A stretch of DNA of 64,000 bases from Plazaster borealis (lineage: Eukaryota > Echinodermata > Asteroidea > Forcipulatida > Labidiasteridae), in contig CM037463.1 of NCBI GenBank assembly GCA_021014325.1, forward strand, positions 20,902,026 to 20,966,025, written 5' to 3'. Position numbers and translations under genes: made by a program. The first letter of the stretch is position 1; every line of letters starts with the position of its first letter. Shown here piece after piece: positions 36,010-38,162 of this stretch. The notes beneath the pieces were generated by a model. It did no database searches, was not told the DNA's origin, and saw only the letters and a list, made by a program, of their open reading frames with translations.

Positions 36010-37131
36010 TACCTTGGACCAAAGTCGTCCAAAATTATTCGAATACGCGCGAGACTTGCACGGTCTATTACTTTGTGAATTGTCTTTTCCAAAGAAGATC
36101 TTTGGTAGTAGTTAATAAGAAGGACAGTTCTTTTCAGAACTGAAAAGTCTCCCGAATTCCAAATATTCTACTCTGCGGCAGTAGAATAATAAGCAAGACA
36201 AGTTCTCATAGAACAAAATCTACCTAGCAAGTAGATTTAAGAACTGAGAAGTCTCCCGAATTCCGAGTATTCCACTCTGCGGCAGTAGAATAATAAGCAA
36301 GACAAGTTCTCAAAGAACAAAATCTACCTAGCAAGTAGCTATATACACATGGTGTTACCGCAAACCAAATATATATTGATACCTCACCATGCAATGGCTC
36401 AAATCCTATAAAGAAGATCTTCGTCTCGAAAGTTGTCTGACTCATTGCGTATGAGTGAACACCAAAATAATAAGAATCAAACTGTCAGCCTGAGTTGATT
36501 ACAAATATTGAAAATGCTTTCTCACAGATCTTGTCCAGGAAAGTTTCGTAGTCATAGTCGGAATTTTTAAATTTTCTTTGATTTTAAACTTAAGGGCACG
36601 CCAATATTGTTGGAAATTCTTATTTGGGGGGGGGGGTGGTTAGAGAGCCTCGATATGAAGTAGTAATTACTGATGAGAAAACGATGTTTTTGTATCAAAG
36701 CGAAAACTGCACTTTGCGAACTCGCAATTAGGCCTACAATATAAGAGAAAATTAAATTTCGCTGCCCCAGATAAAAACCGCCAAGTATACGTCAAGTCTT
36801 GATTGACGGATTATTTTCTGATTGGAAAAAGCTTCTGGTTCGGTTTGTTTATCATTTGCTAACCTTTTCACCCAACCCGGATTTTATCCAATTTAGAGTT
36901 GTTGTTGAACCATAATTATAACTGCACGTTTGATATCTTCATTTTGTCGAATAAAGCCTCGAGCGATAACCCACTTTATGATTTTTTTTATTTCTCTTCG
37001 TGTTGTCATAATATTCTTTGCCGTTTGGTACATACCTGCAGCGGCCAGTCTTGGGTGTATAGTGAATAAACTGGTTAAGTCGTTCGCCTATTGGAACATT
37101 CATAAAGAACTTTGTGTTCACATACTGCATT

Positions 37132-37326
37132 AAAGGTATCGTACACTTTTTTCAATTCAATTTTTTTGGGATAAAAAGTGATATCTTTTTTCATAACCGC
37201 TGCAGTACTTCAAAGTGAAAAGTTTCACAAAATGCATTATACTATCCAAAGCTGCCTGTACTTCTTACCAAGTAAGTTTTTATTGCCATTAATTTTAAGA
37301 GTGATTACGAAACGTATACAGACCAT
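37132..37326 (-). mobile_element. Short chimeric B/A MITE in the GAD fragment
   Basis: One end is A-type (AGGTATCGTACAC) and the other B-type (AAACGTATACAGACC). It has a B-family interior with a large deletion. Confidence 0.75.
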
Positions 37327-37523
37327 TTAAGTACTATAGTTTTTATTCAATTGCACTTTGAGAAGCTTATGTAAAATAGCCATCGGTCAATTAAGCTGAC
37401 GGATTTATCTTCCACGGGGGACATATAACTTGAAGCCCGTGTACTTTACTTTATTCCATCCATTAGTCTACTCTAGCGCTTCCACTACATAGTAAACGGA
37501 GAGTTTAAATGACCCGCGCCTAC

Positions 37524-37583
37524 TTTCGCCCGCCACATAAGCCAGAATTTGAATACAACAACGTGTCGGCCGCATTGTATTGC
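37524..37583 (-). pseudogene. Copied fragment of GAD exon 11 (last 20 codons)
   Basis: Read on the minus strand it gives AIQCGRHVVVFKFWLMWRAK, against AIQCGRHVDVFKFWLMWRAK in GAD exon 11. Differences are one D-to-V codon (GAC to GTT) and two silent third-position changes. The donor GT and the intron-11 sequence that follows are also present (on down to 37326), so this is a DNA-level copy and not a processed mRNA. It begins abruptly at a MITE terminus and has no neighbouring exons, so it cannot make GAD. Confidence 0.92.
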
Positions 37584-37593
37584 CAAACGTATA

Positions 37594-38162
37594 CAGAGCT
37601 TCATAGTTATTTAGACTGACTATACGTTGTAGGGTGAGAGACAACTTCCGATTAGAAGCCATGTTGGGTAACAAAAAGCACATAGGGTGCCAGACTATCT
37701 GCATATTGGGTTATGCTACATTTGGACCCGGAAATGGCGTCCAGCAATCACGTGACTTAAAGGAACATTACAGAATCGGTTTTTGCTAACTGGCAGTGTA
37801 AGCACTTTATATAATTCACCATATACCTAAACTGACAAACCTGTAGAAGTTTGAGATCGATCGGCCATCTGGGTCACGAGAAAATAGTGAAAAACCGATT
37901 ACACATGTGCATGTGTTATACAATGCATGAATAAAACGCTCATGAGCGACAAACTCCAATCGGAAATTAGTTTTATTTATTTCTCATCAAATATGGCATT
38001 TCAGACAGAAATATTTCAAGGGATGTTTTCTACTATCATCATCATTAGACCGTGTAAGTTTTACGTAAATCTGTGATCATAAAGAAAATTTTAATTACCA
38101 GTTCTGTAACGTTCCTTTAAGAAAACTGGCCCCTCCATTTTGCAACTCTTTTCACAGCTCTG
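37594..38162. mobile_element. hAT-like MITE family E, copy 4, interrupted by D
   Basis: Starts CAGAGCTTC and ends ACAGCTCTG. It shares CTTCCGATTAGAAGCCAT and ATGGCGTCCAGCAATCACGT with copies 1-3 and resumes after D with CTGGCCCCTCCAT. The left end is altered and no 8-bp duplication remains. Confidence 0.75.
37761..38116. mobile_element. MITE family D (TTAA) nested in an hAT-like MITE
   Basis: 356 bp with termini AGGAACATTACAGAA and TTCTGTAACGTTCCT (one mismatch), flanked by TTAA at 37757-37760 and 38117-38120. It interrupts the E-type element. A diverged relative may lie at 31930-32245 (shared GTCACGAGAAAATA, GCAAATCTGTGAACA phrases). Confidence 0.85.

What the first reader, a model, noticed from the sequence alone, without database searches (positions are those of the whole stretch)
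37131..37600. MITE-bounded copy of part of GAD exon 11 and intron 11 that keeps a pre-insertion site
Minus-strand 37524-37583 matches the last 20 codons of GAD exon 11 (three codons differ), and intron sequence continues to 37326. At the point where GAD intron 11 carries MITE A copy 4, the copied fragment has a single AGCGCT and no insert, while the gene has AGCGCT on both sides of it. The B-type MITE further along is present in both. So the order appears to be B insertion, then copying, then A insertion. The segment is bounded by A-type and B-type termini, which suggests capture or mobilisation by these TTAA elements.
Basis: seen in the sequence. Interest (0 to 1): 0.78.

Follow-up and report, generated by a model that had tools for sequence, protein, structure and literature searches.

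The report
Gene fragment captured inside broken MITE
In a sea star genome, a short mobile element downstream of the gene for glutamate decarboxylase carries a copied piece of that gene, and the element's patchwork sequence suggests that the piece was copied in by mistake while a break in the element was being repaired.

Summary
Minus-strand 37580-37327 copies the last 57 nt of GAD exon 11 (53/57 identical) and non-MITE intron 11 (177/192), 6 kb past the end of a sea-star GAD gene. The match is not confined to MITE sequence.

The fragment's B MITE is not a copy of the gene's B MITE: 33/166 sites differ against 15/192 in the adjoining intron, and a sister pairing is rejected (p-AU 0.0017). At nine subfamily-diagnostic sites it is gene-like at the first two and other-subfamily at the next seven. 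The far end carries a B left-terminus stub in the same orientation. This fits gap repair: a broken B element used the B in GAD intron 11 as template, copied outward into intron and exon, and was rejoined to its own stub.

AGCGCT is compatible with a pre-insertion site but does not prove one: it lacks the family's TTAA, the A copy is non-canonical, and A could have been skipped between the two repeats.

Gene capture by animal TIR elements is known (Pack-TIRs, PMC8277862). No second assembly could be searched; mobility is untested.

The parts
37577..37600 (-). Left-terminus stub of a B MITE fused to the exon copy
   Evidence: 15-mer TCTGTATACGTTTGG at 37583-37597 matches exactly only the left ends of B7578 and B11552 elsewhere in the window; up to 2 mismatches 10 hits against 0.22 expected. 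The outermost bases (TTAA) are not preserved.
37524..37580 (-). Copy of the last 57 nt of GAD exon 11
   Evidence: 53 of 57 identical
37327..37523 (-). Copy of intron 11 up to the TTAA where B sits, without the A insert
   Evidence: 177 of 192 aligned sites identical
37475..37480 (-). Single AGCGCT where the gene has A between two AGCGCT
37297..37326 (-). Start of the B element, gene-like (S2) at both diagnostic sites
   Evidence: 37303 and 37297; 34 of 35 identical to the gene's B in alignment columns 15-50
37155..37275 (-). Body of the B element, other subfamily (S1)
   Evidence: 7 of 7 diagnostic sites S1; 115 of 130 identical to B31530 against 99 of 130 to the gene's B (alignment columns 51-190)
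37130..37150 (+). Outer right end of the element: A-type left terminus with TTAA, in inverted position
   Evidence: 37128-37150 matches the A terminus at 13370-13348, 95.7%
23715..23864 (+). GAD exon 11 (parent)
   Evidence: tblastn
23914..24216 (+). A MITE in GAD intron 11, non-canonical: about 58 bp lost near the left end, right end stops at GTGTTC
   Evidence: alignment of seven A copies, end table
24366..24750 (+). B MITE in GAD intron 11 (S2 subfamily), presumed template

Best explanation
A B-type TTAA MITE (subfamily S1) 6 kb downstream of GAD was broken near its left end. During repair its right part paired with the homologous B in GAD intron 11; synthesis ran outward through that B's start into intron 11 and the end of exon 11; the new strand was then joined to the element's own left stub through a short imperfect match (GG[T/C][A/G]AT). 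The product is an S1 B element with a 254-nt GAD filler and a repeated B start: a Pack-TIR-like capture by gap repair with one homologous and one microhomologous junction. Shown: structure, identities, difference of the two B copies, subfamily switch. Inferred: break, invasion, order of steps. I take the fragment itself to be a decaying by-product without function (inference).
For: B body not from the gene's B: sister pairing rejected, p-AU 0.0017 (all columns) and 0.0005 (body); divergence 33/166 against 15/192 in the adjoining intron, Fisher p 0.001; no derived state shared by gene and fragment B alone in 169 columns. Switch from S2 to S1 between 37297 and 37275, in five alignments. Stub and body lie in the same orientation and in the order of one interrupted element; the stub is S1-like and unlike the gene's B start. 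Join overlap 4 of 6, P 0.047 against random joins. Parent and copy about 13 kb apart, as in many published cases.
Against: Only two sites carry the S2 signal; two at one end of nine has a chance of 1 in 36 (my arithmetic). In the outer 12 nt of B the gene has four private changes the fragment lacks, so these must be later changes in the gene. A group of fragment, gene and B60301 is in the best full tree (support 44/39) and not rejected for the body (p-AU 0.12). The support for gene B with B60301 was 99/99 but 63, where the truncated B49102 was included. The join is weak. The element's right end is A-type, so the acceptor was already a hybrid.
Confidence: 0.55

Rival explanations
1. Simple copy that included the gene's B, followed by ectopic gene conversion of one of the two B copies by another B element.
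For: Same TTAA position of B in both; B copies are dense in the window, nine found, so conversion partners exist; also explains a mosaic.
Against: Needs one more event and leaves the stub at 37577-37600 unexplained.
Confidence: 0.2
2. End bypass: transposase moved the gene's B together with flanking intron and exon, using a downstream sequence as second terminus.
For: The unit has TIR-like sequence at both ends and TTAA at one.
Against: Predicts that the fragment's B is the gene's B; rejected. TTAA is missing at the left outer end.
Confidence: 0.08
3. Segmental duplication or break filler unrelated to MITEs, with B elements inserted independently at the same TTAA in gene and copy.
For: The two B copies are different elements; both sit at TTAA.
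Against: The copy ends at B: nothing beyond 37130 matches the intron beyond the gene's B; independent insertion at one TTAA is a coincidence; the stub is unexplained.
Confidence: 0.1
4. On the side question of AGCGCT: A was already in the gene, and was skipped during copying, or lost later from the fragment, between the two AGCGCT repeats, so the single site is not a pre-insertion site. This is compatible with the best explanation.
For: Gives the same single AGCGCT; template jumps are already invoked; the site lacks the family's TTAA.
Against: The gene's A has 8 private changes in 274 sites (2.9%; the six other copies 1.5-3.3%) against about 4.2% per lineage since the copying, in the direction of A being younger, but P is 0.20.
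Confidence: 0.35

Closest known systems
Single-copy Pack-TIRs of animals by gap filling (PMC8277862; abstract, sections 4, 7, 8, 14 and passages read)
   Same: Non-TE DNA with intron inside a TIR element, filler of 254 nt (published median 224), parent about 13 kb away (160 of 281 lie within 15 kb), small overlap at a join (published median 2 bp).
   Different: The parent stretch adjoins and contains MITEs, which that survey filtered out; one junction looks homologous (B to B); the termini are a B/A hybrid with TTAA target, whereas 323 of the 370 published cases are hAT or TcMariner.
P-element capture of flanking DNA (end bypass), known to me through the account in PMC8277862
   Same: The captured DNA adjoins an element of the same family in the parent.
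   Different: The element beside the captured DNA is another copy, not the parent's.
Kolobok T2-MITEs of Xenopus (PMC6004289, passages)
   Same: TTAA target and AGG at the terminus.
   Different: The bases after AGG are not RR in most A and B copies; no transposase examined.

Membership tests
Pack-TIR (criteria of PMC8277862, section 14) | Internal non-TE sequence of 100 to 5000 bp | tested here: met
   254 nt, 37327-37580
Pack-TIR (criteria of PMC8277862, section 14) | Both flanks cover at least 10 bp of the termini of one element | tested here: inconclusive
   B-type stub with decayed outer bases on the left, A-type terminus with TTAA on the right
Pack-TIR (criteria of PMC8277862, section 14) | Unique parent at 90% identity or more | tested here: inconclusive
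   92-93% identity, only source in the 64-kb window; the rest of the genome could not be searched
Pack-TIR (criteria of PMC8277862, section 14) | Length ratio of internal sequence to parent 80-120% | tested here: not met
   The parent holds the 303-bp A insert 23914-24216; met only if A is left out
Pack-TIR (criteria of PMC8277862, section 14) | No TE within 100 bp of the parent copy | tested here: not met
   B begins at the end of the parental stretch
Pack-TIR (criteria of PMC8277862, section 14) | Not a retrocopy | tested here: met
   Intron sequence and donor GT are included
Kolobok-type MITE (T2-MITE; PMC6004289) | TTAA target duplication | tested here: met
   A copies other than the gene's: left 6 of 6, right 4 of 6; five B copies: left 5 of 5, right 4 of 5
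Kolobok-type MITE (T2-MITE; PMC6004289) | AGGRR terminus | tested here: not met
   AGG is present, but it is followed by TA, CA or GT in most copies
Kolobok-type MITE (T2-MITE; PMC6004289) | Mobilised by a Kolobok transposase | not tested
   No transposase search was made; the genome could not be searched

The most novel reading that the evidence does not exclude
Dispersed MITEs of one family act as homologous entry points: a broken MITE copies from a sister MITE in a nearby intron and drags exon sequence out with it. Such captures leave a mosaic MITE beside the captured exon, and a published animal survey would miss them because it discarded parents next to a TE.
Probability: 0.45. Interest if true: 0.6.

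Novelty: new variant of a known kind. Interest (0 to 1): 0.42.

Why it matters
How animal DNA transposons pick up gene pieces has been explained by transposase-driven end bypass or by repair-driven gap filling. Here the two make different predictions about one short stretch, the MITE next to the captured exon, and the sequence favours repair. If mosaic MITEs prove common beside captured exons, captures with TE-linked parents, which a published survey filtered out, could be counted and dated from sequence alone.

Tried and rejected
Rejected: match limited to MITE sequence; retrocopy (intron present); one large inverted duplication together with 28160-28626 / 39952-39461 (order not collinear); coding use by the exon's own acceptor (the copy starts inside exon 11, so that acceptor was not copied; no transcript data seen); canonical TTAA insertion of A at the site seen in the fragment (no TTAA there).

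Led nowhere: search of the window's own genome (seven requests unanswered), so no second assembly, other loci or empty sites were examined. Eight paper searches led to PMC8277862 as the nearest work. Searches returned mainly off-topic papers, so I do not claim that sea-star cases are unpublished. Papers seen: PMC8277862 abstract, outline, sections 4, 7, 8, 14 and passages; PMC13317346 and PMC6004289 passages; others as listings only.

Dropped from counts: the first count of private changes in the gene's A (18 of 301) took in misaligned ends; the trimmed count is 8 of 274. Seven gap columns at the cut right ends of the B pieces (columns 195-201, scored S2) are not counted as diagnostic. B49102, truncated at its left end, was in the tree but left out. 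With it, the gene B/B60301 pair had bootstrap 63 instead of 99.

Full report
What is there. The window comes from a sea star: its GAD is closest to Asterias rubens (82%), Patiria miniata (79%) and Acanthaster planci (77%) in a search that scored 7988 candidates, 4089 of them passing, 120 listed. GAD is on the plus strand; tblastn finds 15 coding exons between 7164 and 31168, exon 11 at 23715-23864; residues 1-40 of the Asterias isoform were not matched. Six kb beyond, on the minus strand, 37580-37524 copies the last 57 nt of exon 11 (53/57) and 37523-37327 copies intron 11 (177/192 aligned non-MITE sites, K2P 0.083; 37/43 before the A site, 140/149 after it). Blastn E-values are 8.7e-38 and 2.5e-95. 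In tblastn with three sea-star GAD proteins this is the only match with E below 1 outside the gene's exons. The four exon differences fall in three codons; the one amino-acid change is in the fragment.

The MITEs. Two related families are dense here: seven A copies and nine B copies, some truncated. Full A elements are about 380 bp, full B elements about 385 bp. They sit at TTAA: in the six A copies other than the gene's, left 6 of 6 and right 4 of 6; in five B copies, left 5 of 5 and right 4 of 5.

The B element in the fragment is not the gene's B. It begins at the same intron TTAA but differs from the gene's B at 33 of 166 sites, against 15 of 192 in the adjoining intron (Fisher p 0.001). 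The gene's B pairs with B60301 (support 99/99; only 63 with the truncated B49102 included). Holding the gene's B and the fragment's B together is rejected (p-AU 0.0017; body alone 0.0005). No derived state is shared by these two alone in 169 columns, where the gene's B has 15 private changes. At sites that separate the subfamilies, S1 (B7578, B9170, B11552, B31530) and S2 (gene, B60301), the fragment is S2 at 37303 and 37297 and S1 at seven sites from 37275 to 37166. Four other alignments agree, with one site unassigned in one of them and an additional S1 site in two. A group of fragment, gene and B60301 appears in the best full tree (44/39) and is not rejected for the body (p-AU 0.12), so the separation from the gene's B is firmer than the fragment's own subfamily.

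The other end. At 37600-37577 the exon copy is joined to a B left terminus in the same orientation. Its 15-mer occurs exactly only here and at the left ends of B7578 and B11552; with up to 2 mismatches there are 10 hits against 0.22 expected. The gene's B reads differently at this place. The join overlaps at 4 of 6 positions, P 0.047 against random joins. The outer end at 37130 is an A-type terminus with TTAA; the outer TTAA on the stub side is not preserved.

Reading. Stub, filler and body are in the order expected if one S1 B element was broken near its left end and repaired by copying from the B in GAD intron 11, outward into intron and exon, then rejoined to its stub. The return to the acceptor's own sequence lies between 37297 and 37275. 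Against this: two sites alone carry the S2 signal, and in the outer 12 nt of B the gene has four private changes that the fragment lacks. Gene conversion after a simple copy remains possible. End bypass is disfavoured because it predicts the gene's own B beside the captured DNA.

The AGCGCT site. The gene has AGCGCT on both sides of A, the fragment has one. A is not canonical here: about 58 bp are missing near its left end, and its right end stops at GTGTTC where other copies go on with AGTGCCTTTAA or close variants. T of the left repeat can belong to the element's TTAA and AG of the right one to its terminus, so the real duplication is 3 to 6 bp, and the single site has no TTAA. The insert may be a repair product and not a transposition (inference). 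The private divergence of the gene's A (8/274) is below the roughly 4.2% per lineage since the copying, but P is 0.20.

Comparison. PMC8277862 (abstract, sections 4, 7, 8, 14 and passages) reports 370 Pack-TIRs in 55 of 100 animal genomes. Single-copy ones are ascribed mostly to gap filling; 160 of 281 lie within 15 kb of the parent, and microhomology was found at one breakpoint or both in 190 of 281. This case works like those. Under that paper's filters it would have been excluded, since MITEs lie in and next to the parental stretch; the authors say that TE-linked parents may be missed. It is a variant of a known kind and not a strict member by those criteria. The TTAA target and AGG terminus resemble Kolobok T2-MITEs (PMC6004289, passages), but the AGGRR motif is not met.

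Limits. One window and no second assembly (seven unanswered genome searches), so copy number, mobility, polymorphism and assembly error are untested.

Noticed in passing
28160-28626 and 39461-39952: A stretch of GAD intron 13 next to exon 14 has an inverted copy, 75% identical over a 501-column alignment, downstream of the gene; probably an old dispersed repeat.
   Followed up: partly
60301-60740: A B MITE is split by a stretch of about 140 bp (near 60437-60570) with an inverted-repeat core; AATGTGGTTAT stands on both sides.
   Followed up: no
19978-20183, 21536-21736, 21745-21930, 37640-37756: A further repeat family; two copies are 98.5% identical over 201 bp, and one copy begins about 40 bp beyond the captured fragment.
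   Followed up: no
37130-37156: The acceptor element is itself a hybrid: B on the left, an A left terminus in inverted position on the right.
   Followed up: partly
41951-42451 and 59880-60171: Tandem arrays: 24-bp unit, 20.7 copies; 105-bp unit, 2.8 copies.
   Followed up: no
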